A DNA stretch of 64,000 nucleotides, from positions 838,001-902,000 of the forward strand of contig JAINUG010000305.1 in the NCBI GenBank assembly GCA_029706075.1. The letters are read 5' to 3'. The notes below the pieces were generated by a model. It saw only the letters and a program-made list of their open reading frames with translations, made no database searches and was not told the origin of the DNA. The first letter of the stretch is position 1; every line of letters starts with the position of its first letter. Shown here piece after piece: positions 4,691-64,000 of this stretch. The translations under genes were made by a program, and so were the position numbers. Source of the DNA: Aldrovandia affinis. Lineage: Eukaryota; Chordata; Actinopteri; Notacanthiformes; Halosauridae.

Positions 4691-4798
4691 CTCCAGAAGT
4701 ATTGGCACACTTGGTAAAGAGGAGAAAAACAGTCTATGTAAAAATGTCTTTGTTTTTCATCAGCTTGATCTTACACTCAAAATATGAGAGAAATCTGA
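4683..4798 (+). mobile_element. Tc1-like terminus fragment
   Basis: It begins TACAGTGCCCTCCAGAAGTA followed by TTGGCACA, a Tc1-type terminal repeat as seen in many fish. It ends where the 115-bp tandem array begins. Confidence 0.6.
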
Positions 4799-5088
4799 CC
4801 TTTATAGCATAGCATAGGCATAGGCTATATAACTCCCATTTTACCTTACTACGCTATTACAGATATATTACATTATATTACATTCTTAAGCATTTAGCAG
4901 ACACTAAATCTAACCTTTATAGCATAGCATAGGCATAGGCTATATAACTCCCATTTTACCTTACTATGCTATTACAGATATATTACATTATATTACATTC
5001 TTAAGCATTTAGCAGACACTAAATCTAACCTTTATAGCATAGCATAGGCATAGGCTATATAACTCCCATTTTACCTTACTACACTATT
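4799..5088 (+). repeat. 115-bp tandem repeat, about 2.5 copies
   Basis: Units start at 4799, 4914 and 5029 with TTTATAGCATAGCATAGG and contain CTTAAGCATTTAGCAGACAC, part of the family B SINE tail. The units are nearly identical, so the amplification is recent. Confidence 0.9.
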
Positions 5089-6548
5089 AACTTACAGAAT
5101 CGTGGGTCTGTCTACGCGAGTGCAAGACTGGATTATATTATATTAGTCTTAAGCATTTAGCAGGCACTCTTATATACACCTCATTCCACCACTGTATTTA
5201 GCAAATTAACAGTTTATTTTAATGTACCACTCATTTGGAATACATTTCAGGAAGATGCTAAAATACAGTCATCATTAATATAGTATCATTAAGCACTTTT
5301 AAATCCTTGGTAACCACTGCACATGTTTTTTATAGAACGTTTCCTGTATGTCTCCAGTGTATTTTTTAACTGTTATTGCTATTTATTATGTGTATTATGG
5401 TCGTTTTATATGCTTTGGCACACAGGGCTCCACTGTAAATGAGGCTTCTGTCTCAGATGGGGGTCTCAAAACCATTCAAAGGTAGAACATGAAAAGTGAC
5501 CTGGATTCAGACAAATCAAAGAAACGTCGGAAAACACTTAAATCCAGGAAGCTGAATATTTCACACATCTATGGTATCATCAGAGAACACACAGCGGGGG
5601 GATAGGAGCGGGACTACTTTCTCTCAAGATTAGATATCTCACAAGCCTCTCTTCCTTTGTGCCATTAATACACATAAATTGAGTTGAGCTCAGTCTTGCA
5701 TACCACTTCATATATCATGTTCACTGTGTGTATGCCTGATATATCTCTGCAGGTTCTCTGCATGGGGTTTCTGCCATTAGCGGGAGCCAGTGCACAGAGG
5801 GCTGTGGGCCTGGCATGCGGTCTGTATTCAAGTCCGCTGTGATTTTGGGCCATCTGCTTTACATCAGAGCCCCTTGTATCACCTTGTCTTAGCATTATCA
5901 GCATTCACTGCAGAGCTGCTGAGAGGAGCAACAGTCTTGTTCCATATGGACTGCATTAAGCACTCCATTAAGACATTGTGGAAGGTGTCGGTCTGGACAG
6001 GGGAATCAGGGGGGCACACAGCAGTACCGCATCATCTGAATGTACCTGTGTGCTTAAGACTGCTCTGCTCTGTCAGTAGGTGGCTGGAACAAGGGAGCTG
6101 AATACCGTCCAGAGAGGTCAATAAAATAGTGGCAAACATCTCTGTGTTGTGTAGTGTGTAATGTTTAGTGTTTTGCCGAAAAGCAAGCAAGGCTGAAGGG
6201 TTTAGTTCATTTTTGTAAAGTGCCTGTTTCCTCTCTCTCTCTCTCTCTCTCTCTCTTTTGCTTGTTCTTTGTATTTTATTTTATTTTTTATTTGACCTGT
6301 GGCCATATGCAAGCCTACACCAGGTACAATCAGCTTTATCAGATGTATTCAGGAGGCTTTGCTATTTGATCTGGAAGTGGCTTATACAGTGAGGGACAGC
6401 AGTGATCTCAAGTGAGTTGGCCTATATAATGCACATCGGAAATAAAAAATACTGTGTGCACAGAGGTAGTAAAAGATAACATGTTCTTTACATCCTTGTG
6501 TTCTTTCTCCAGTAGCTGGGTGGACTTATTTCACATCAGTGTCAACTT
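5089..6548. other. gene-free stretch before the minisatellite
   Basis: No coding exon is recognised. The (CT)n tract at 6230 is the only clear repeat. The frame at 5790-6101 has no domain motif. Confidence 0.6.
6230..6257. repeat. (CT)n microsatellite
   Basis: An uninterrupted CT tract of about 14 units. Confidence 0.9.
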
Positions 6549-7432
6549 GGATAGGCTCATAGTACTGTAAGGTTATGAACAGCCTGGTCAGGCTCATAGT
6601 ATTGTAAGGTTATGAGCAGCCTGGTCAGGCTCATAGTACTGTAAGGTTATGAGCAGCCTGGTCAGCTCATAGTACTGTAAGGCTATGAGCAGCCTGGTCA
6701 GGCTCATAGCACTGTAAGGTTATGAGCAGCCTGGTCAGGCTCATAGTACTGTAAGGTTATGAGCAGCCTGGTCAGGCTCATAGTACCGTAAGGTTATGAG
6801 CAGCCTGGTCAGGCTCATAGTATTGTAAGGTTATGAGCAGCCTGGTCAGGCTCATAGTACTGTAAGGTTATGAGCAGCCTGGTCAGCTCATAGTACTGTA
6901 AGGTTATGAGCAGCCTGGTCAGGCTCATAGCACTGTAAGGTTGTAAGCAGCCTGGTCAGGCTCATAGTACTGTAAGGTTATGAGCAGTCTGGTCAGGCTC
7001 ATAGTACCGTAAGGTTATGAGCAGCCTGGTCAGGCTCATAGTACTGTAAGGTTATGAGCAGCCTGTTCAGGCTCATAGTGCTCTAAGGTTATGAGCAGCC
7101 TGGTCAGGCTCATAGTGCTGTAAGGTTATGAACAGCCTGGTCAGGCTCATAGTGCTGTAAGGTTATGAGTAGCCTGGTCAGGCTCATAGTGCTGTAAGGT
7201 TATGAGTAGCCTGGTCAGGCTCATAGTACTGTAAGGTTATGAGCAGCCTGTTCAGGCTCATAGTGCTGTAAGGTTATGAACAGCCTGGTCAGGCTTATAG
7301 TGCTGTAAGGTTACGAGCAGCCTGGTCAGGCTCATAGTGCTGTAAGGTTATGAACAGCCTGGTCAGGCTTATAGCACTGTAAGGTTATGAGCAGCCTGTT
7401 CAGGCTCATAGTACTGTAAGGTTATGAGCCTG
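6549..7432 (+). repeat. 37-bp minisatellite, about 24 copies
   Basis: The unit includes GGCTCATAGTACTGTAAGG and TTATGAGCAGCCTGGTCA. There are roughly 24 copies with scattered substitutions and occasional 1-2 bp deletions (e.g. near 6665 and 6885). Each unit contains the inverted arms TATGAG/CTCATA and AGCCTG/CAGGCT. Confidence 0.93.
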
Positions 7433-11100: not shown

Positions 11101-11684
11101 TGTGGCAGCCCAAGGGGCTGCACAAGGAAATGGCTGCCTGGCCTACAACACATGGGAGCCAGGGAACACTACATTTCCCAGCAGGCCACAGTCACACCTG
11201 AGCCAAGTCAAGGCAATGGGACTAACGACCAGCTGAAGGCCATTTCAAGGCCTATTTAAAGGTCTGATTCCCATCACACTGGGAGAGGAGTAGGAACGTG
11301 TTTGGAAAGGAGTTGGTGAGTGTGTTTGGGGAAGTAGAGAACCTGTGAAGTCGTCTGACCAGCCAGGATTTGAGGAGAGAGTGTTTTTTGGATTGTTGTG
11401 TATGAAATTGGATTGTGTGAGGACCCCCCTTTTGGATATCGACTACGGACTGGATTGCGGAACGGAACTAGATTTTGTGGATTGGATTTTGGACATTGAC
11501 AACGAGTAGGGTTGTGGACTTTGTGTTTGTATTCCCCCGAATACCCCGCTCTTTGTTTGGTGTAGTGTTTGTCAAGATTAGTAGTTTAATAAATTATTGT
11601 TTTGTTTATATTACTGCCTCCTCTGTGTTCTTTAACTTGCTTACGCCCTCTGCAAGGTCCGTGCGTGTCGCCCAACCCCTGGGG
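11101..11684 (+). repeat. 5' LTR of the coiled-coil element
   Basis: It begins TGTGGCAGCCC and carries TATTTAAAGG and TTTAATAAATT. It is matched along its length by 13799-14358, apart from a segment of about 28 bp near 11409-11437 that is absent from the 3' copy. The exact 3' end is uncertain because the two copies diverge after CCCCTGGGG. Confidence 0.85.
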
Positions 11685-11694
11685 ACACCACATA

Positions 11695-11709
11695 TGGTGG
11701 AGAATGCGG
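11695..11709 (+). promoter_or_regulatory. candidate primer-binding site
   Basis: TGGTGGAGAATGCGG begins with TGG, the complement of the CCA end of tRNAs, about 10 bp after the visible 5' LTR end. The priming tRNA was not identified. Confidence 0.45.
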
Positions 11710-11791
11710 TCAGAGGGCATCACTTATAGGCAAGAGGAGGTAGTGCAAGTGAGTGGGATTTTTGATTTTTGATTTTTGAAAGAACTACTCC

Positions 11792-13480
11792 ATGATGGAA
11801 GGGGACTGGACAGTGGATCCAGACATGGAGTCTTGGCTGGAGGCAGAGGGGCACAAGCACCTGTCAAAAGTGCACCGACGTTCCCTCAAGGTCTACTTTC
11901 AAGCAAGTCCAGCCCTCAAATGCTCCTTTTTGGCTGAAATGGTGCCCGACGTTGCTGAGGCCATCAGTGAAATGGAGAGGGTGTTGAGAACCCTGAAGGG
12001 ATGACAAGAGATACAAAAAGTCCAAAAGAATAATGGCCACTCCCGCTCGGTGGTGCACCCTAGGGAAAAGGGAAAGAACCCAGGTAGGCCACAAGAGCAG
12101 CCGACTAGTGAAATAAGAACTGCTGATATGTGTGCTGGGTTAGAGGCAGAGTTGGGAGAGGCGCAAATGTTCATAAATGGCCAAGATAAAGTCATTCGGA
12201 AACTGGAGAAGTCTTGTCGGGACCTGAAGGAGGACCTGGTGAAGAACCAGAAGCGGGCGGCCATTGTTGAGGACCAATGGCGAGTCACCCTCCAGGAGAT
12301 CCAAAGGCTGAATAGTGCCCAGACTGAGCTGGACAGGGCAAAGGTGGAGTTGGGGACCTCAGAGGAGCGCCACCTGCTGGCTGTGGGGCAACTGCTGGAG
12401 GAGCACAGCGACTCCCTGAGGAAGATTGGGAACATTGCTGTGGAACTCGAGAATGAAAAGGCATCTCTTTGCAATGAGGTGAGATGTGTGGAGGCCCACA
12501 GACAGGAGCTGAAAGAAGAGGTGAAGAACCTAACCCAGATGTTAGAGGAAGAGCATCTGCAGTGTCTGAACATCCAGAAATCCCAGGACAAGGCCAAAGA
12601 AGAGTGGGCCAGGGCATTGTTGGATGTGCAGACCAGGCTCGAGCAGAAGGAGGCAGAGCTAAGGAGAGCAGCAGAGACCCATGCGTCCGAGGCAGAGCAA
12701 CTCCGCAGCCAAGTGGAGCAAGAGCGTGAGGGAAGGCGGGAGATAGAGGTACAGTTGGAGCAGGTGAAGACCCTTGCTTTACAAAGAGAAGAAAATATTT
12801 TTGCATTGCAGGAAATTCACCAAACTACCTCTGCAGCACTCCTGATCGAACAGAGGAAAAATGAAGAGCTCCCGGTTCTGAAAGAGCAACTGCGTGCCTT
12901 AACCAGGAAGCTGGACCAAAAAGAAGCCCAGCAGCTGGCCACGGAGAACTCTTTTTGTGAGACCTTGAAAATCCAAACGGAAACGCTACTTGACCTACAA
13001 AATCAACTGGACGAGGTGAGTGAAGAGCTTGAGTGTGCAAAACGTGTGCCCGGTGTACAAGATTCTGCCACACAGGTGGAGCTCTCACAGCCAGTGGAGC
13101 CAGCAGGAGGCAATGACCAGACATTGGAGTGGGATAGATGGTCTTCAGTCCCACTCAGCCTGCAGGACCTGGGAAGGGGACTAGAGGAGCAGTATGTGGA
13201 GGATGAACTGTGTTGGGACCACAGTGTTGAAGAGGGTCTCTTGACTATGGCTGAGGAGGCCTGGTTGAAGGCCCAACTATCTCCTGATGTGGTGAGTCCG
13301 TCGCTGTCACTACTGAGAAAAGTGAAGATTAGAGGTTTTCCACTGAAGGGAAACGGGAAACGGAACAGGCAGATGTTTAGATGGAATGACCGTGGGAAGC
13401 GTGTATGGAGCAGAGATGCAAGAAAGACAAAGAGAAAATTAAGTGTTGAAGAACATGTTTTCCCTGGTGGCCAAGCCTAA
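11792..13480 (+). CDS. coiled-coil protein of the LTR element, interrupted by one in-frame TGA
   Basis: One frame runs from the ATG at 11792 to TAA at 13478-13480, 563 codons, broken only by TGA at 12002-12004. Residues 1-70 form a short domain starting MMEGDWTVDPDMESWLEAEG. From about residue 90 to 420 the protein is a long Glu/Lys/Gln/Leu-rich alpha-helical coiled coil with heptad-like spacing (for example ELDRAKVELGTSEERHLL and QLRSQVEQEREGRREIEVQL). The last 60 residues are strongly basic (GKRNRQMFRWNDRGKRVW, then RKTKRKLS). I see no zinc knuckle, protease motif or polymerase motif. It could be a Gag-like structural protein or a captured host coiled-coil gene. The basic tail could bind nucleic acid, but that is inference. 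The TGA could be a CpG decay of CGA or a readthrough stop. Confidence 0.6.
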
Positions 13481-13798
13481 TCACCTGGAAGAGGAGTGGA
13501 AGTGGTTCACTGGAGGAGCCATGGATAGCTGGTGAAGCACAGAGCCCGAGGGGTGATCGGTCTGTCCGTGAAGCCCAGAGCCTGTACCCACTGGTGGCCA
13601 TTTTGTGGCAGAAAAGGTGAGCAACTTGTGCCATGCACTAATGACTTTCAGACCTTACAGCAGATGAATTGAGATGGAATCTGGACGTTTGACCTTGGCG
13701 GAAAACTGCCTGAGTGGACCTGGAGAGGGGGACCCTCCTGGTGGCCGTTGGACACAGGCCGCTCAGCCCTCCCGAGGTCAGAGCTGAGGAGGAGGGTG

Positions 13799-14358
13799 TG
13801 TGGCAGCCCAAGGGGCTGCACAAGGAAATGGCTGCCTGGCCTACAACACATGGGAGCCTGGGAACACTACATTTCCCAGCAGGCCACAGTCACACCTGAG
13901 CCAAGTCAAGGCAATGGGACTAACGACCAGCTGAAGGCCATTTCAAGGTCTATTTAAAGGTCTGATTCCCATCCCCCTGGGAGAGGAGTAGGAACGTGTT
14001 TGGAAAGGAGTTGGTGAGTGTGTTTGGGGAAGTAGAGAACCTGTGAAGTCGTTTGACCAGCCAGGATTTGAGGAGAGAGAGTTTTTTGGATTGTTGTGTA
14101 TGAAATTGGATATCGACTACGGACTGGATTGCGGAACGGAACTGGATTTTGTGGATTGGATTTTGGACATTGACAACGAGTAGGACTGTGGACTTTGTGT
14201 TTGTATTCCCCCGAATACCCCGCCCTTTGTTTTGTGTAGTGTTTGTCAAGATTAGTAGTTTAATAAATTATTGTTTTGTTTATATTACTGCCTCCTCCGT
14301 GTTCTTTAACTTGCCTACGCCCTCTGCAAGGTCCGTGCATGTCACCCAACCCCTGGGG
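13799..14358 (+). repeat. 3' LTR of the coiled-coil element
   Basis: It begins TGTGGCAGCCC directly after a purine-rich tract and matches the 5' LTR at about 97% by eye. Homology ends after CCCCTGGGG at 14358, where flanking DNA may already begin. Confidence 0.85.
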
Positions 14359-19329: not shown

Positions 19330-20069
19330 GAGAGAGTGAGGCTAGGCTGGTGGTTTCCTTAACTTCCTGGACTTGAGCCTAAACGCTACCAAAGACGATT
19401 AGACGCAGCATAATCTACAAATGATTCAAATTATATCTATAATAGAGGAATTTACAGATACAAATATGGAACAGTTTTTTTTTTTCTAAACCAAATTGCA
19501 AGTATGTTTATTCTTATACTTCTTCATCTTCTTCATATTATTATTATTATTATTATTACAGATTTTTTATTGAGTTAACATTTTTAACACAATAAATGTC
19601 AGTTGTCAATATAATGTGTATCATGTGCTAATGGGTTGTGGTCACGCATTTTAAATTGTTATTAGAGAGAATTATAATTGTATTTTCTTATTGTGTTTGA
19701 TTTATGCGTATTTTATCTTAACATTTTTCATTAAACGCGTTTTGCTTTTGCGTTAATTTCCTGCCACGCATGGGACATGAAGAGCAATACTGTGTCTTTC
19801 TTATTTGTTTTAGCCTTTCTCTGTGATTAAGCCAAGCGGATGAAAGAAGAGAGGCGTTCCTGCACAATCAAAATTGACTCTGCGATTGACAGAACTCAAG
19901 ATGTAGACGTTTAAATCATCCGAGAGTTTATTTAGTTAAGTTACCTGAAGAACGAAGGAAGGTATTAAAACGTATACAAATACTTACCAATGTCAATGGG
20001 TGAGTGACGAGTAACTGCTAAAGTAACAGAACCGCTTGCGAATAGAGGGAACATCAACGATTACGCGTG
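19330..20069 (+). other. oxtr: candidate oxtr 5' untranslated region with a short intron
   Basis: A possible non-coding exon runs from about 19330 to 19501 and ends at the good donor AA|GTATGT (19502). A pyrimidine-rich acceptor, TTATTTGTTTTAG, ends at 19813. Exon sequence would then continue to the ATG at 20070. Mammalian OXTR also has 5' non-coding exons, which makes this layout plausible. The two splice sites are read from sequence; their use is inferred. Confidence 0.3.
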
Positions 20070-20991
20070 ATGGAGAGTCTTTTCAAAGAGCAAGATTTTG
20101 GGGTAATGAACGCGTCCTGGACTAACTCGAGTCTCGGCAACGAGAGCGAAAGCGCAAACCAGACGGTGAACCCCTTGAAGCGGAACGAAGAAGTGGCCAA
20201 AGTCGAGGTGACTGTGCTCGTCCTGATCTTACTGCTCGCCCTGGCAGGAAACCTGTGCGTACTGCTAGCCATTCGCACGACCAAACACAGCCAGTCTCGG
20301 ATGTACTATTTCATGAAACACCTCAGCATCGCGGATCTGGTCGTGGCGGTCTTCCAGGTGCTGCCGCAGCTCATCTGGGACATAACGTTCCGATTTTACG
20401 GACCCGACTTTTTGTGCCGGCTGGTTAAGTACCTGCAGGTCGTCGGAATGTTCGCCTCCACGTACATGCTTGTGTTGATGTCCATAGACAGATGCTTAGC
20501 GATATGCCAGCCATTGCGCTCTTTGCACCGAAGGAAAGACCGCTTCTATGTCATCGCTTCTTGGATGCTCAGCCTGTTGTTTAGCGTCCCGCAAGTGTAC
20601 ATATTCTCCCTGATAGAGGTGGGCAACGGAGTTTACGACTGCTGGGGAGACTTCGTGCAGCCTTGGGGTGCCAAAGCGTACGTGACGTGGATTACCCTAA
20701 CCATATATATCATTCCAGTGGCCATACTAAGCATCTGTTACGGACTGATAAGCTTTAAAATATGGCAAAACTTTAAATTGAAAACCAGGAGGGACCAGTG
20801 CATAACTCTCACCCCGAAGGCGTCCAGGGGTACGGCGCTTTCTCGGGTGAGCAGCGTCAGGCTCATCTCCAAGGCAAAGATCAGGACGGTTAAAATGACG
20901 TTTGTGATAGTCGTCGCGTATATCGTGTGCTGGACGCCCTTTTTCTTCGTGCAGATGTGGTCGGCTTGGGATCCAGAAGCGCCCAGAGAAG
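20070..20991 (+). CDS. oxtr: oxytocin/isotocin receptor, coding exon 1 (N-terminus to TM6)
   Basis: This exon encodes residues 1-307 plus the first base of codon 308 of a class A GPCR for oxytocin-type neurohypophysial peptides. The family acts at the plasma membrane and signals mainly through Gq/phospholipase C. The extracellular N-terminus has four N-glycosylation sequons (N14, N19, N24, N30). TM1 has the GN pair (G60-N61), TM2 has LSIADL with D89, and C116 is the TM3 disulfide cysteine. The TM3 end is D140-R141-C142, the DRC variant of DRY typical of vasopressin/oxytocin receptors. TM6 has CWTPFF followed by VQMWSAWD, close to the mammalian oxytocin receptor. I chose the ATG at 20070: it has G at -3 and +4 and gives 389 residues, the same as human OXTR. 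The reading frame stays open to 21017, but homology stops at 20991, followed by GTAACC, a donor in phase 1. The intron position between TM6 and TM7 is the conserved one. Confidence 0.96.
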
Positions 20992-22039
20992 GTAACCTTT
21001 CCGCCTGTGACGAATAAAAACCCCGCGCGTCACATACATCTTGTAATGTGAGCTTGTCGAATGGGTGTCCATCCCTGTGAACATTTCCCAAGACAATATA
21101 TGAAAGTTGATGGACAGCCTATATAAGCTACAATGTAGCCTATGCAATTAAGTATAGTCAGTTGGAGACGTACCGTTGGCCGTGCCCAGCTGTTATCTGT
21201 GTTGTTTTCATAAATATGACATTTTGCAACCGCAGTTTCTGGAACTCAGTACTTTGCCACACGCAATTTAATAGGGAGATGGAGAGTGCAGACGAAGTCA
21301 CACAGTAGGCTAGATGACTTAGTGAATTTCTGTCTCCTGACAATCACTATGAGTTTGATTTAATTATGTATTATTAACGTTGGATTTCTCTTCCAAAGTT
21401 CATAATTTGGAAGTATATTTGCTACCTAACGCATTCACCTGGTCACTTTTTGTGCTGCGCTTCTGTAACCTACTCAGCATAATATGAAATGTGTTGGGCA
21501 CAGTATGAAATGGCCTAAAATGTTATTGCTTAAATATTGTCTTAAAAGGTATTATTTATTTATGATCCGTAGTTCCTTTCAGCACAGTTATTTAAAGTTT
21601 CGCCTAAAACTGGTGCACCTATGTCCACATATTTAGGCTATTCTAAGGGGCGGCGCCAGAAAATTTTGGTTGGGGGTGCTAAGGAGGTGCTTTATGGTTG
21701 TGAGGGGGTGCTCATGAAATGTATACACCCGTGCAGGTCACGGGCGCGCAGACCACGGCTATGAAGGCTACATTACTACGCATAATGTTTAAACCGTCTA
21801 GTCAGATATTACAGCACGGCTACTACAACAAGCATGCTATGCATTGCTTCAGCTGATGTACTGCCATCTCACGCACTCACAAATTAATACAATAACCCAG
21901 ACCCTCAATACCAATAGCCAGGAAAACATTGTCACTACATGACAGATAAACACTGCTTAGACCATCTCACTCATTGCAAAATCAACTGGAGCTTGTGTTG
22001 GCTCGATTTCTTCTTAGTTTTTAGTAGCCCGGAGCCCGA

Positions 22040-22660
22040 ATTTATTTTTTACAGCACCTGCACTGATTCAAATAACTCTGTCGCCAGTTGTATGTTTTTA
22101 ACGCAGTCCACCAAAACAAGACTTGGAGGATGAGCGTGGCAATGGATATACAGTGCCTGTGGGACATCTTTTCTGAATGTATCTGCTACACCGTTATGAC
22201 AGCCTGACATAACGGCTGCGCCGTCATAGCATTGAGCAACGCACGTATTGTGCTCAATGTTGCATTTATTATGTGTCAATTTGATTGTTTTTAAGAGCGA
22301 ATCAGCGTCTAATCCATCGGCTGAAGTGAAATGTAGGAATTATTCCAGTGCAACATCATTGTGCAAATAGCGTGCCACCACAGACACCTGTTATTTTTTG
22401 CGTCCTTACTTTCGTCGACTATCAATGCAAACAGTCCAGCTTCCTCTATTTCACTACTTATTTGCTCCCTAACCATATTTGCCATAATTTCAATTAACTC
22501 GTTCTGTATATCATGGTGAGTATACTTCGCATTTCTGGGATTGTCTGATATTTTTTGCGCAACAGTTTTGTCGAACTTGCCAATAACGTGTAAAAATTCA
22601 ATGAAGTTGAGATGGCAACGTATCGTACGTAGGTTAATTATAGGTACCCTCGTCAAAAAA
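22040..22660 (-). pseudogene. hAT transposase relic (ZMYM1/DUF4371-like)
   Basis: Two minus-strand frames match a hAT transposase of the DUF4371/ZMYM1-like type. The first (22656 downward) has NAKYTHHDIQNELIEIMA and FALIVDESKDA, where the DESKD stretch holds a catalytic Asp region. The second (22279 to 22049) has CVAQCYDGAAVMSG, then HCHAHPPSLVLVDCV. They are separated by a frame break and the C-terminal dimerisation domain is not seen. A GGGGCGGCGCCAG word at 21645 with a GGGGGTGCT-rich tract could be an end of the same element. Confidence 0.75.
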
Positions 22661-22845
22661 AGATTTTTTATGATTTTCCTAAAATGTATATGATTAGTAT
22701 TTACTTAAAAGATACTTTCTTTAGTGTATCTGTGGCTGCTGGGTAACCAGCCAGCCAGGGTGTAACATTGGCTGCTAAATGTGTATTAGGCAGGAAGGGG
22801 GAGAAGAGACTTGCTTGTGAGTCTCAAATCGAAGAAAGTTACAGA

Positions 22846-37294: not shown

Positions 37295-37636
37295 CTACAC
37301 CTCTTTGCGCAGGGCCACCCGAATGCTGCCGAAGACCTTGCCCAGGGCCTCGAACAGGGGGTCGCAGAAGGTGTGGATGCAGAGGGAGTAGATTCGGCTC
37401 AGGCACTGCGTCTCGATCAGGTAGCTCTTGATGCAGGGCATGACGGCCCAGATGTGGCAGAAGGAGATGCAGGCGAACAGGAAGCCCCACAGCAGGGAGA
37501 TGGGGATGCCGAAGATGGCGGACAGCACGCGGTAGCACCAGTACTTGGAGACCGTGAAGGTGGTGTAGCTGGCCTTCCACACCCCGTCCAGGCTGTGGGT
37601 CCCGTCCGGCTCGGCAATCACATCCTCAAAGTCCAC
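37295..37636 (-). CDS. cav3: caveolin-3, exon 2
   Basis: The acceptor GCAG precedes 37636, and 113 codons follow to a stop at 37295. The exon starts V38-D39 followed by the caveolin signature FEDVIAEP (residues 40-47). The scaffolding domain lies at about 54-73, with [17 protein letters not shown]. The long intramembrane hairpin follows, with [18 protein letters not shown]. Three C-terminal cysteines (in MPC, SLC and TFC contexts) sit at the positions palmitoylated in caveolins. The protein ends VALRKEV, close to human CAV3. The [14 protein letters not shown] and [13 protein letters not shown] stretches favour cav3 over cav1 and cav2. The reading frame is intact. Confidence 0.96.
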
Positions 37637-39076
37637 CTGCGGAGGGGCGGAGCCAGATCAGAACGTCCATCACGTCACAAACAACATCAACACAGCCATT
37701 ACTACTGGTGGTCCATTAACCATAATAAGATTTATATATGGGAGGACTTTGTTACTGGACCTAATAAAACATTCAAAAAACATCTCCCAATCTGAAGATT
37801 AAAAAAACTGATATAGATATGCTATTTATAGAAATGGCTCCTCGTTATTTTGTCAACAGTCTGGTGTTTCAGCTCATTCATGAATGGAGATAATCACGTT
37901 TCATGTTGAAAGACTGCTGTGCACAGCTGCAGTTTGTCAACAGCAAGGACAAACTCTTCAACAAACTTTTTATTTGAATGTGAAATAGTACATGAGCCTC
38001 TCTCTTAAATGGAATCTTATTCTTGGAGTTGTTGCAGAATATGAAAATAACAGAGTTCCGAGACGTGAGTTAGCATGTGAGCGTCCGCTGCAGAATGTGA
38101 CGTCACCCCTTCAGAAGCAATAACAGTATGAATAGTTCCCTTGGCTGTGGACCTCAGTCTTTAGCTCAGCAGGCTAATCATGTCTCTTGTTGTGGTGTTG
38201 GTTCGAAACCCCAGCAAGCAGACCTACCCCCGTCACACAAAGGTGGAATCACATTCTAGTGACTGGCGAGACCAGGTGTTGCAGGTTCACGACGGGCTGT
38301 GCAGTTGTATGAAAATAGACCGTGACAGGGCGTGAAGCTGTCCCAAGGCAAAGCCCAAACCCTGGATTGCTTTATTCTGCTCATACCACGGACAGAAATA
38401 TTTAAGCACTCAAACACAATTGTTGAAGAGCTAAGTTGTAGAGCTTCTTACTTTTTTCCTCCTTATTTTCAGTTATGAATGGAATGTTCAATTGAAATAT
38501 TGAACGTCTTGTGTATTGGTTTGTAACCTTGGTAAAGCCACTTTCCCTGGAACTACTTGATAGTCGTGTATTATTATGTTTGTCCATGAGGTTTACAATA
38601 AAATAATGAACACCCCCTCGACCAGTCAGAATCACATTTTTAACAAGGTACTGGTATAGTGTAAAATAATGATCACAATCGGACTGCCAGTGTGCTACCC
38701 TTCTGTGAATAGGGAAGTTGACCTCATTAGTCATGCTTACAAAGAGTATGTATTTGCTTATAAATGAATAAAATATATTTTATTTCACAATATGTTATAC
38801 AATATGCAATATAATATAGAAATGCATCATTTATTTGTTTATACATTATATTCCTTATAATTATATTCTAGCATCGCTTAGTTTGACTTTTTCACACCGT
38901 AATAGCAGAAGCGTGGCTGCAAGTCCACACATTGAGAGTTGCTTTATGACTTGTTATGCAGCCATTTATATTCAGATTCCAACTAATCGTGTTTTATAAA
39001 GGATTACCTAATGAACACACAGACACCCAGATCCTTATCACAATGGCAATAATCCATAAAGTAACATTTTCTGTAT

Positions 39077-60249: not shown

Positions 60250-61541
60250 TTAATGGAATTCCTCTGGGATCTGCCCTGGGATTCTGAAGCCGGGCACCGT
60301 TTGTTCCAGTGTGCTCCGAGGGCTGGAGGTCGCACAGCTGGACCGGGTCTCTGCCGTGCAGGAGGACCTCTGCAGGAACTGGAGGAAGTTCTCCTGGGCC
60401 GAGCCCTCGTGGCTGGAGGCCGCCAGCTCCGTGGGCCGGGGCCCGTAGCACCGCCGCAGCTTGCACAGCTCCTCCCGGATTTGGCGGTTCAGGAGCCCGT
60501 AGAAGAAGGGGTTGAGGGCAAAGGAGGAGTAGGCTAGCCAGGTGACCGTGCCCTCCACATCCTCTGGGCTGCGGAGCGAGGCGTTCAGGGACAGGTGCAG
60601 GTGGAAGGAGAAGTAAGGCAGCCAGCAGAGCAGGAACTGGCCCACAATGACCACCAGGGTGAAGGCCGCCTTCCCACCCCCAAAGATCCTCTCTGGCGAC
60701 AGCCGCTGGGGTGCATTGCGGGTGGTAGTGATGATGGTGGTCTGGCTGTTGATGGAGTCTGAGCGGTGCTTGAGTTTGGTGGCCCAGGCAGGAGAGGGCC
60801 TTGCTGGCGGGCGGCCATGCGGGCCACCCTGTAGACCCGGCAGTACACAGTGAAGATCACCAGGGCTGGGAGGCAGAAGCACACCACCGTGAACACAATG
60901 GAGAAGACCTTCCTGTAGTCGCTGTGACTCCAGTGCAGGGAGCAGTGGGCCGCGCTGATGGAGCTCTTGTTCCCATATGCCGGCCAGCCGAACAAGGTGA
61001 CCAGAGCTAGCGAAATGGACTTGACCCATATGAGGACCATCACGGCAATGGCCAGGTTGAGTGTCATCTTGACCTCATACCTCATAGGGTGCACAATGTA
61101 GTAGTACCTCTCGATGCTGATGGCAGTGACGGTGAGGATGGACGAGCAGATGAGGAACACATTCAGGAAGATGTAGACCTGGCACTCCAGCACGGTGAAT
61201 GCCACTGTGCCGAAATACGGCGAGCTAGTCACAATGCCCAGGGGCATCAGCAGCACAGCGCAGAGCAGGTCCACCACGCACAGGTGGCCAACGAACGCAA
61301 ACTTCCTCAGATGAGGAGCTTTTATGATGACCACCATCACGGCCGTGTTGGCCAGGAGAGCCACCAAGTTCAGTGCCACCATGAAGAACATCCCCACCAT
61401 GTCCTTGAGGCGGGACTGGGCATTGGGCAGTACGCCCAGCTGCATGCTGGGAGCTGTAGGCATAGGCTCCCAGAGGCCAGATGTGTCATTCAGAGCTGTG
61501 TGGTTGGTGATAGGATTGAACATCGAAGCAGACTCTTCCAT
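60250..61541 (-). CDS. gpr61l: GPR61-like orphan GPCR, single exon, with a one-base frameshift
   Basis: This is a class A orphan receptor of the GPR61/GPR62 group. Frame 1 runs from the ATG at 61541 to about 60793: N-terminus with sequons N13 and N18, then TM1-TM5. It has HLCVVDLL in TM2, IERYYYIVHPMRYEV (ERY form of DRY) after TM3, and VYRVARMAARQQGPL entering loop 3. Homology then continues in another frame from 60792 to the stop at 60250. That part has PAWATK, GGGKAA, TM6 with FLLCWLPYFSFHL, TM7 with NPFFYGLLNRQIR, and the GPR61-type tail ENFLQFLQ and FRIPGQI. One base is missing between 60793 and 60792, in a CCTCTCCT context. Adding it would give about 430 residues, against 451 in human GPR61. 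Everything else is intact, so an assembly or sequencing error is likely; a real null allele is possible. The C-terminus stops soon after FRIPGQI, earlier than in mammals. GPR62 fits less well. Confidence 0.88.
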
Positions 61542-64000
61542 AATTCACAGTGAATGGTTAAGAGCTTGCATCTTAAACTCCCCCATTCTTTCTCTTTGAA
61601 GTCCAAGGGATTTATCTTTTAGAATGTCAGACATTATACTCCAAAATAGTCCTGTTGGCAAGAGAGAATTTTTTGTTTAGGACAGAACTCTTTAACTCTT
61701 AACCTTTTCTTTGTTGTCTAAAAATCTTGCCAAACAATTCACCCACCCACACTTTGTGCTTATGTTTTAGGAGCCAAAAGCAATTAGCTGCAACACAGTT
61801 CACTATTACATACAAATAATTATTTTAGCTGGCATTCTATTCAGCAATCTGCAATTTGTTCAGCTTTAGTGATTGAAAAATTGTGCAAAGGAAAACAAAT
61901 AGGATTAATGCCCCCGGAAGACAGATGCTCTTAAAAATGAAAACCTAAAAATGGCACAGCTTCAGTTGTTAGTACTCAACATTTTTCTATCACTCGGAAA
62001 CATGTTTTCTCAAAGTTATCCATTACCCCATTTACATCACCCACTTCTTGCGGTGTATTCGTAATTGTGTTGTTGCATCCACCTCTCCAGCTTTATGAGT
62101 GTAAGGAGGAAATACTTCTGACTCCTGGCAGCATCTGAACCATCTCATACTGCATATGACATTTGCTTGCTTTTCTGACCTTACGCTATCTGGGACATGT
62201 CTCGTAGACAAGAGTAAGAATTTTCTTGAACCCCCTTTTCCCCTAACCTTTTTGAACGAAAAACATAATGTGCATCCTTGTTGCTGTGAAGGTTAACTAT
62301 TCATGGTTCTGTGTGGCTGAGTAGGTAGAGCACGGCGCTTAGGTTGTGGGTTCGATTCCCATTGGGACCACATGTACTGAAAAATCTATGCAGTCATTAC
62401 TGTAAGTCGCTTTGGATAAAAGCGTCTGCTAAATGGCACATATTATATTATATTACAAAGGGCTAATCTTAAGATAATAATAAGTTGCCATGTAATTATA
62501 ATTTTTAAATTAACTTCTTATGCCCTATTTTTACCTTTCTCCCAATTGGTATGCTTGTGCCATTGCTGCTATGTGCTCGGTCCACTCTGAGCCGCGTGCG
62601 CTAGCGTGCTGCAGCGTCTTTCCCCTCCGCAGTCCCCCAACTGTCACTGTGCCACAGGACTGCACCACCCGAACACTTTGGTGTCATCCCTTTCCAAACC
62701 GTTAAAGACACTATCTATCTGAAGTACACTTACATATGAGAATATCATCTTGTTGAGTGGGGCATTTTGAGGTATAGTCCAGTGTTTTCCATTATCACTG
62801 TCGAATATTAATCATACATTTATAATTTTCTCCAATACTAGAGATACAGAGATTGTCATATGGTTATCAAAATATTGAATGAATGTGAGTGTTCTGATCA
62901 CTCCCCCTTTAAAAAGTAAATGTTGAGTCTCTACGCACCTGTCATTGGATAGTGGGTGAAATACTACAAAACAGCTGCGCCCCAGTGGAACTGTTTTACT
63001 CATCACACTCCTGCCACATCCATATATATATCGGTGAACCCAGTACTCTTCCTCACAAAGCTATTGAAACAAAGCAGGATTTCCCATTTGTTTCCCAGAA
63101 TTCTGTGACTATGCATGTTTTCATTATTGCCCTAAATCTACAGTAGGCTGTGCTGTCACATTCTGCCGATGTTTGTCCCCATAATCTTCTCTGGCGGATA
63201 GACTTTGACATCAAATGTTTGCTAATGAGATCGAGCTCGCGGCACGAAGCCACGGGAAGAAGTGGTGTGCTTCGTGAATGACATAAACGCGGCCTCGTTT
63301 CCATCGCATGCATCCTCCTCTGCTACGGCGTGCTGCCAATGGTCCGTTCAGAAAATATTCATTTTTGATAGCACATTAAAACCGATGCAAAGCTCTGTCT
63401 GCGGAGACTACCAAACACTGTGTGTTCCCCTGACTCTCTTAAATACATTAGTGTTGTACATTAGTAAAGCAGCTCTCGGGAGAAGGTGCCCGGGAACTGA
63501 GCTTTTGTCTTAAATTTGTTTCATGCAATCATGCAAGTAATCACTATAACCCTACAGGCACAGTATCGGATTGTGGAATTGATTATTTTAAAACAATACT
63601 GTATGAATCCAAGCATGATATTCTAAAGGGCAGCTTCCCTGATGAACTTAAAGCTACTTTGTAGTTAAGCTGTTTGTTTGAATGCAGCAGAAATGTATCC
63701 ATTTGGATAAAAGGGCAATCCCATTTATATAGAGCTGGTGTGACCAAGCAAACATTTTTCCATGAGTAAAAGTATATTTTTCAGATTTTTCAAGATGTTT
63801 CCGACTACCAATGTTGATGGGAGCTTTAGTTCTGGATTAACTAAACTCTTAACAGAGTCTAAAAGGGATACATTTGTAATCTATCTGAGTCGATTTAACA
63901 TTAACAATATTTTTGCAGTGTCTACTGTGTATCTTTCTTTGGATAGAGCACCGCATACGTTGCAAATATCTAAAGCTGATTCCATATCTCCTGAGCACTT
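61542..64000. other. upstream region of the GPR61-like gene
   Basis: It contains a SINE at 62308 and otherwise no recognisable exon. A 5' non-coding exon of the receptor gene could lie here but cannot be called. Confidence 0.5.
62308..62455 (+). repeat. tRNA-headed SINE sharing the family B tail
   Basis: The A-box-like GGCTGAGTAGGTAGAGCAC and B-box GGGTTCGATTCCC form a good tRNA-like head. The tail is GTAAGTCGCTTTGGATAAAA. The head differs from that of the other family B copies. Confidence 0.7.

What the first reader, a model, noticed from the sequence alone, without database searches (positions are those of the whole stretch)
11101..14358. LTR element carrying a long coiled-coil gene and no polymerase
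The sequence shows paired LTRs of about 560-584 bp, each with a promoter-like TATTTAAAGG and a poly(A) region. Between them are a candidate primer-binding site, a purine tract and one coiled-coil frame of 563 codons. The usual gag-pro-pol content is absent. LTR elements without pol are normally non-coding, so a retained long protein frame is unusual. It may encode a Gag-like scaffold used in trans with another element's polymerase, or a captured host coiled-coil gene. The two LTRs are about 97% alike, so the frame has survived little decay.
Basis: partly seen in the sequence, partly recalled or inferred. Interest (0 to 1): 0.75.

Follow-up and report, generated by a model that had tools for sequence, protein, structure and literature searches.

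The report
Fish retrotransposon carrying captured HMMR gene
This is an old, broken copy of a large and recently active family of fish jumping genes that seem to lack their own copying enzymes but keep a protein partly built from a piece of the fish's own HMMR gene, an unusual case of a stolen host protein segment being kept in working order.

Summary
The element is real, but its frame is broken. The window comes from Aldrovandia affinis, a halosaur fish. The element is a 3.26-kb two-LTR copy with PBS, purine tract and no recognised pol. Its "563-codon" frame has a TGA at codon 71 (70 + 491 codons), and no target duplication flanks it.

It belongs to a large family: 442 exact LTR-PBS junctions, 35 relatives read. 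Of 28 LTR pairs measured, 19 are at least 99% identical and 19 have flanking duplications of 4 nt or more. Of 35 relatives, 22 hold open frames of 468-786 codons. Median dN/dS is 0.44.

The coil's core (about 155 residues) is a processed piece of host HMMR/RHAMM: two host exons joined across a GT-AG intron, and a tree placing it beside Aldrovandia HMMR. In relatives it follows a small helical domain and/or a CCHC knuckle, like a Gag with a host coiled coil in its middle. Some relatives carry a second, non-HMMR coil. Copies are mosaics. In 79 of 442 sampled sites no pol was recognised, so enzymes in trans are inferred. Gag identity and particle formation are unproven. Verdict: a new variant of a known kind, a non-autonomous LTR element with a captured host gene.

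The parts
11101..11692 (+). 5' LTR, 592 nt, TGTGG...CCACA, with TATTTAAAGG at 11253-11262 and AATAAA at 11588-11593
   Evidence: self-repeat, LTR alignment, same 592-nt unit in relatives; motifs read
11695..11709 (+). PBS-like stretch TGGTGGAGAATGCGG
   Evidence: read; LTR-end plus PBS pattern occurs 442 times in the genome, 0 for the reversed control
11792..12001 (+). 70-codon N-terminal domain, predicted four-helix
   Evidence: AlphaFold2 mean pLDDT 80.8, pTM 0.60
12002..12004 (+). in-frame TGA, codon 71; the frame runs on at this point in the related copies whose N-terminal frame was read (L009, L010, L011, L012, L032, L034, L036)
12005..13480 (+). 491-codon open frame (with its stop): coiled coil, then an acidic stretch and a basic tail
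12299..12763 (+). HMMR-derived core (residues 99-253 of the 491), without the host intron that would fall near 12613
13786..13798 (+). purine-rich tract next to the 3' LTR
   Evidence: read
13799..14358 (+). 3' LTR, lacking 24 nt inside and the last 8 nt

Best explanation
A decayed copy of a high-copy, recently active, non-autonomous LTR retrotransposon family of the halosaur Aldrovandia affinis. The family's single long frame encodes a Gag-like fusion protein: a small helical N-terminal domain and/or a CCHC knuckle, a coiled coil whose core was taken from spliced HMMR mRNA, then an acidic stretch and a basic tail. Shown: LTRs, PBS and purine tract, flanking duplications, recent insertions, constraint on the frame, intronless HMMR origin, mosaic and tandem copies. 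Inferred: the LTR drives an RNA that is both messenger and genome; the protein multimerises through the host-derived coil and holds element RNA through the knuckle or basic tail; RNAs packed together allow template switching, which made the mosaics and the capture; reverse transcriptase and integrase come from another element in trans.
For: Family size: 86 matches from 36 scored of 5,410 candidates; 442 exact LTR-PBS junctions. Recency: 19 of 28 LTR pairs at least 99% identical; 19 of 28 with flanking duplications of 4 nt or more. Constraint: median dN/dS 0.44 over 188 of 190 pairs of 20 frames, all below 1; codon model 0.40, 0.37 and 0.53 for HMMR part, next coil and tail, 19 rows. HMMR origin: 9 of 11 protein hits are HMMR; shuffles never reach the real score for any of ten HMMR proteins; two host exons joined across a GT-AG intron; element rows one group (99/96) beside Aldrovandia HMMR (92/93). 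Gag-like layout: CCHC in 18 of 35 relatives, N-terminal domain in 15, both in 4 (regex in any frame). Mosaics, tandems.
Against: No profile or fold recognises a Gag domain. Window-type copies lack the CCHC yet some have near-identical LTRs (L009, L011), so the knuckle is not needed by every copy. The A-type and E-type N-terminal domains are only 22% identical, so calling them one domain is a judgement. No pol partner found. The dN/dS rows were picked for open frames; in the pre-coil segment 1% of 76 pairs was not below 1. Ten of the 19 flanking duplications are AT- or AC-repeat-like and weak evidence singly. No expression data.
Confidence: 0.66

Rival explanations
1. Passive passenger: the family is mobilised wholly by another element's Gag and Pol, and the long frame does nothing for transposition.
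For: No pol recognised; several relatives have broken frames (13 of 35 have a longest open frame under 468 codons); the window copy itself has a stop.
Against: dN/dS about 0.4; frames of 468-786 codons open in 22 of 35 relatives, while the other two frames of the chosen set hold 49-56 stops per 1,000 codons.
Confidence: 0.15
2. The protein acts on the host rather than as a scaffold: an HMMR-derived coil that binds spindle or centrosome partners of HMMR, helping the element in dividing germ cells.
For: The core is HMMR-derived and constrained (omega 0.40). HMMR's mitotic role is recalled.
Against: The retained segment lies between the HMMR_N and HMMR_C profiles of P0003 and P0004 and has none of either; L101 keeps a long frame though most of the HMMR part is gone.
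Confidence: 0.12
3. The coil resembles HMMR only because all coiled coils look alike.
For: Coiled-coil composition; no HMMR profile is hit by the piece.
Against: Two shuffle controls, HMMR-only hits beside the element's own kin, 61.5% identity over one host exon of 52 residues, tree placement.
Confidence: 0.03
4. A host gene family that happens to sit between repeats, not a mobile element.
For: Long constrained frames; P0001 and P0002 are annotated as host proteins.
Against: LTRs at both ends, flanking duplications, near-identical LTR pairs, 442 junctions.
Confidence: 0.04

Closest known systems
Crocodilian endogenous retroviruses with captured host mRNAs: KIT-ligand in CrocERV29, nectin3 in CrocERV31 (PMC4299795; passages and section 15 read)
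   Same: Host mRNA carried inside an LTR element, spread to several copies, open frames under purifying selection.
   Different: There the captured gene is a separate frame inside a retrovirus with pol; here a piece is fused inside a Gag-like frame of an element with no recognised pol.
Bs1 of maize and LTR-mediated retrocopies in animals, zebrafish among them (review PMC5408686; passages read)
   Same: Host mRNA joined to LTR-element sequence, thought to arise by template switching.
   Different: The passages describe retrocopy formation; here the captured piece sits in a conserved frame of a family with hundreds of junctions.
TR-GAG elements of plants (search listing only)
   Same: Short LTR elements with one frame and no pol.
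   Different: Named for a recognisable gag domain and described in the listed plant papers; here no gag profile matches and the middle is host-derived.
TRIM and LARD elements (recalled)
   Same: LTR, PBS and purine tract without pol.
   Different: By definition non-coding; this family keeps a long constrained frame.

Membership tests
LTR retrotransposon | Two LTRs with TG...CA ends, PBS and purine tract | tested here: met
   the window's own 3' LTR has lost its last 8 nt
LTR retrotransposon | Target-site duplication | tested here: met
   4 nt or more in 19 of 28 LTR pairs; not in the window copy
Autonomous LTR retrotransposon or endogenous retrovirus | Own protease, reverse transcriptase and integrase | tested here: not met
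   no such Pfam match in the window pieces or in the long frames of L014, L100 and L101
Non-autonomous element of a known autonomous family | A pol-bearing element with matching LTR and PBS in the same genome | tested here: inconclusive
   none recognised in 79 of 442 sampled junctions, one 451-nt piece each
TR-GAG | A recognisable gag domain as the only gene | tested here: inconclusive
   CCHC in 18 of 35 relatives but no gag profile match; no listed fold match for the N-terminal domain
TRIM / LARD | No coding frame | tested here: not met
   long frames in 22 of 35 relatives, dN/dS about 0.4
LTR element with captured host mRNA | Internal sequence homologous to a host gene and lacking its introns | tested here: met
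LTR element with captured host mRNA | Captured frame expressed as protein | not testable with these tools
   no transcript or protein data here

The most novel reading that the evidence does not exclude
A retrotransposon family that replaced the capsid part of its Gag with coiled coils taken from host genes more than once (HMMR, and in many copies a second coil) and reshuffles these modules between copies by template switching: a Gag scaffold that evolves by stealing host oligomerisation domains instead of keeping a capsid fold.
Probability: 0.3. Interest if true: 0.82.

Novelty: new variant of a known kind. Interest (0 to 1): 0.62.

Why it matters
Captured host genes in LTR elements are mostly known as single retrocopies or as passengers of complete retroviruses. 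Here a captured piece of a host coiled-coil gene became a constrained part of the only protein of a family with hundreds of LTR-PBS junctions and recent insertions, in an element without a recognised polymerase. This makes it testable whether a Gag can use a borrowed coiled coil where a capsid domain would be, and whether a defective element is kept alive by its own protein. It also explains a class of 'hypothetical' coiled-coil proteins in fish annotation (P0001, P0002) that should not be counted as host genes.

Tried and rejected
Segmental duplication as source of the paired LTRs: rejected; relatives on other contigs have the same LTRs with flanking duplications.

Chance coiled-coil similarity: rejected on two shuffle controls, the exon-wise match and the tree.

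Phage or viral-contig relatives of the 491-residue piece: none confirmed.

CCHC part of P0001 as query: found only itself among 2 candidates.

Second coil in L100, L101 and L103: weak matches to HMMR only (E 0.002 or worse in single comparisons). From memory it resembles golgin subfamily A member 3; no call confirms this. The genome search for its host gene listed element-like copies with long frames (150 scored of 1,128 candidates), so its source gene is not located.

Pol-bearing partner: not found. The 79 sites were taken from the roughly 100 places listed first, not at random. Of the 14 pieces without family DNA, the longest element-strand frame of 10 was scanned; L052, L062, L080 and L125 were judged by eye only.

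Rows dropped: dN/dS used 19 of 35 fetched loci (long open frames) plus the window piece; L024, L026 and L029 are near-copies of each other. The codon model left out L026, and its pre-coil run failed. LTR dating used 25 of 35 loci plus the window; the other 10 had incomplete pairs. Searches scored capped candidate lists.

Full report
Host. The window is G000:C1807:838001-902000 of a 1.22-Gb assembly. HMMR in this assembly lies on a contig of 5,985,393 bases, the contig length given for the Aldrovandia affinis protein P0003. Of eight aligned stretches of P0003, five match at 100%; the other three (64, 97 and 99%) run over exon edges or through an intron. I take the window to be Aldrovandia affinis, a halosaur.

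The observation. The 5' LTR is 11101-11692 and the 3' LTR 13799-14358, 97.3% identical plus a 24-nt gap; the 3' LTR lacks the last 8 nt. PBS-like and purine tracts are in place. The frame from 11792 is cut by a TGA at codon 71, leaving 70 and 491 codons. This copy has no target duplication. With 2.7% LTR divergence and a stop, it is an old, dead copy.

The family. A DNA search gave 86 matches from 36 scored of 5,410 candidates; 35 places were fetched. They share the LTRs and fall into structural types. Type A, like the window, has the 70-residue domain and no knuckle. Type B has a CCHC knuckle without that domain, its frame starting at the ATG inside the PBS-like stretch. Type C matches the window's second half at only 73-77%. 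Type D has a short N-terminus. Type E has a domain 22% identical to the window's (L043) and the knuckle. By pattern in any frame, 18 of 35 loci have the CCHC, 15 an N-terminal domain and 4 both. An exact pattern across the LTR end and PBS occurs 442 times, 0 for the reversed control. Some copies stand in tandem: seven junctions about 2.75 kb apart on C391, two-unit arrays in L033 and L036 whose outer flanks share 4 nt (read). A search with the E-type N-terminus and knuckle gave 150 matches from 150 scored of 693 candidates, with open frames up to 876 codons.

Activity and constraint. Of 28 LTR pairs (25 loci, the window, and two inner tandem pairs), 19 are at least 99% identical and 19 have flanking duplications of 4 nt or more; ten of these 19 lie in AT- or AC-repeat-like flanks. 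For 20 frames (19 loci plus the window piece), 188 of 190 pairs had dS above 0.03: median dN/dS 0.44, all below 1; coil 0.39; the pre-coil segment 0.51 with 99% of 76 pairs below 1. A codon model on 19 rows gives 0.40 for the HMMR part, 0.37 for the following coil and 0.53 for the tail. The other two frames of those rows hold 49-56 stops per 1,000 codons. The rows were chosen for open frames and the copies recombine, so the numbers are descriptive.

Origin of the coil. The 491-residue piece found 11 proteins among 7,995 scored: P0001 and P0002 from Aldrovandia, and nine HMMR proteins. For ten HMMR sequences the 155-residue core scores 174-390; for each, neither 300 block shuffles nor 300 heptad-position shuffles reached the real score. 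In the host gene the matching exons (P0003 residues 519-571 and 572-671) are parted by an intron of about 0.59 kb with GT-AG ends; the element runs straight through. In a tree of 21 rows the 12 element rows form one group (99/96) beside Aldrovandia HMMR (92/93), itself a long branch whose place is less sure. I read this as one capture of spliced HMMR mRNA in the halosaur lineage. P0003 lacks a clear match to the part before window residue 152, which Albula and Scleropages HMMR have: that exon is lost or missing from the gene model.

More than one piece. Four long frames (802-864 codons; L100-L103) carry the N-terminal domain and the CCHC. L102 has HMMR and then the window-type coil; L100 and L103 have HMMR and then a different coil; L101 lacks most of the HMMR part and has more of the other coil. 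That second coil is not clearly HMMR and gave 151 matches from 150 scored of 1,128 candidates. P0002 contains it too. Its resemblance to golgin A3 is recalled only.

Mosaics. Along the window element the closest of the 35 relatives changes from tile to tile: L010 at the start of the LTR and near the 3' end, L009 in the N-terminal domain, L025 and L013 before the coil, L039, L041 and L020 in it, L027 after it. This fits template switching between RNAs packed together.

Gag or not. A CCHC of nucleocapsid-like spacing ahead of the coil and a helical N-terminal domain suggest a Gag. No profile recognises them and the model of the domain has no significant fold match. I say 'works like a Gag' as an inference and do not file it as one.

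Polymerase. 79 of 442 LTR-PBS junctions were sampled 2.05-2.5 kb downstream (80 asked, one beyond its contig): 65 show family DNA, 14 do not. The longest element-strand frames of 10 of those 14 have no Pfam match to reverse transcriptase or integrase at E up to 0.1. A partner with a differing LTR end would be missed. Enzymes in trans are inferred.

Literature. Seven searches of one open-access library listed no paper whose title or displayed abstract start describes this family; only the best-ranked papers of each were shown. Nearest precedents: crocodilian ERVs with KIT-ligand and nectin3 (PMC4299795, passages and section 15); Bs1 and LTR-mediated retroposition (PMC5408686, passages).

Noticed in passing
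L100, L101, L103 (e.g. G000:C669:2167060-2167677): A second coiled-coil module, not clearly HMMR, sits in the same frame in many copies (151 matches) and in annotated protein P0002; recalled, not tested, as golgin A3-like.
   Followed up: partly
G000:C391:1380601-1397134: Seven LTR-PBS junctions about 2.75 kb apart on one strand: a head-to-tail array of this element sharing LTRs.
   Followed up: no
G000:C1967:4866494-4870980: HMMR model P0003 has no clear counterpart to a segment present in Albula and Scleropages HMMR and in the element: exon lost or missed by annotation.
   Followed up: partly
window 20046-21014 +: Open frame with a 7tm_1 receptor domain; looks like an oxytocin/vasotocin-type receptor (recalled).
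   Followed up: no
window 37298-37657 -: Caveolin domain exon (Pfam E 3.8e-50).
   Followed up: no
window 60588-61544 -: Second 7tm_1 receptor frame.
   Followed up: no
window 6553-7429 and 4791-5089: Tandem repeat arrays, self-match offsets in steps of about 37 bp and of 115 bp.
   Followed up: no
window 22312-22704 -: Weak DUF4371 match (E 6e-5, below the gathering score), perhaps a DNA-transposon remnant.
   Followed up: no
3' LTRs of relatives, e.g. L009, L014, L020, L030: In several copies the long frame runs on into the U3 part of the 3' LTR and ends there.
   Followed up: no
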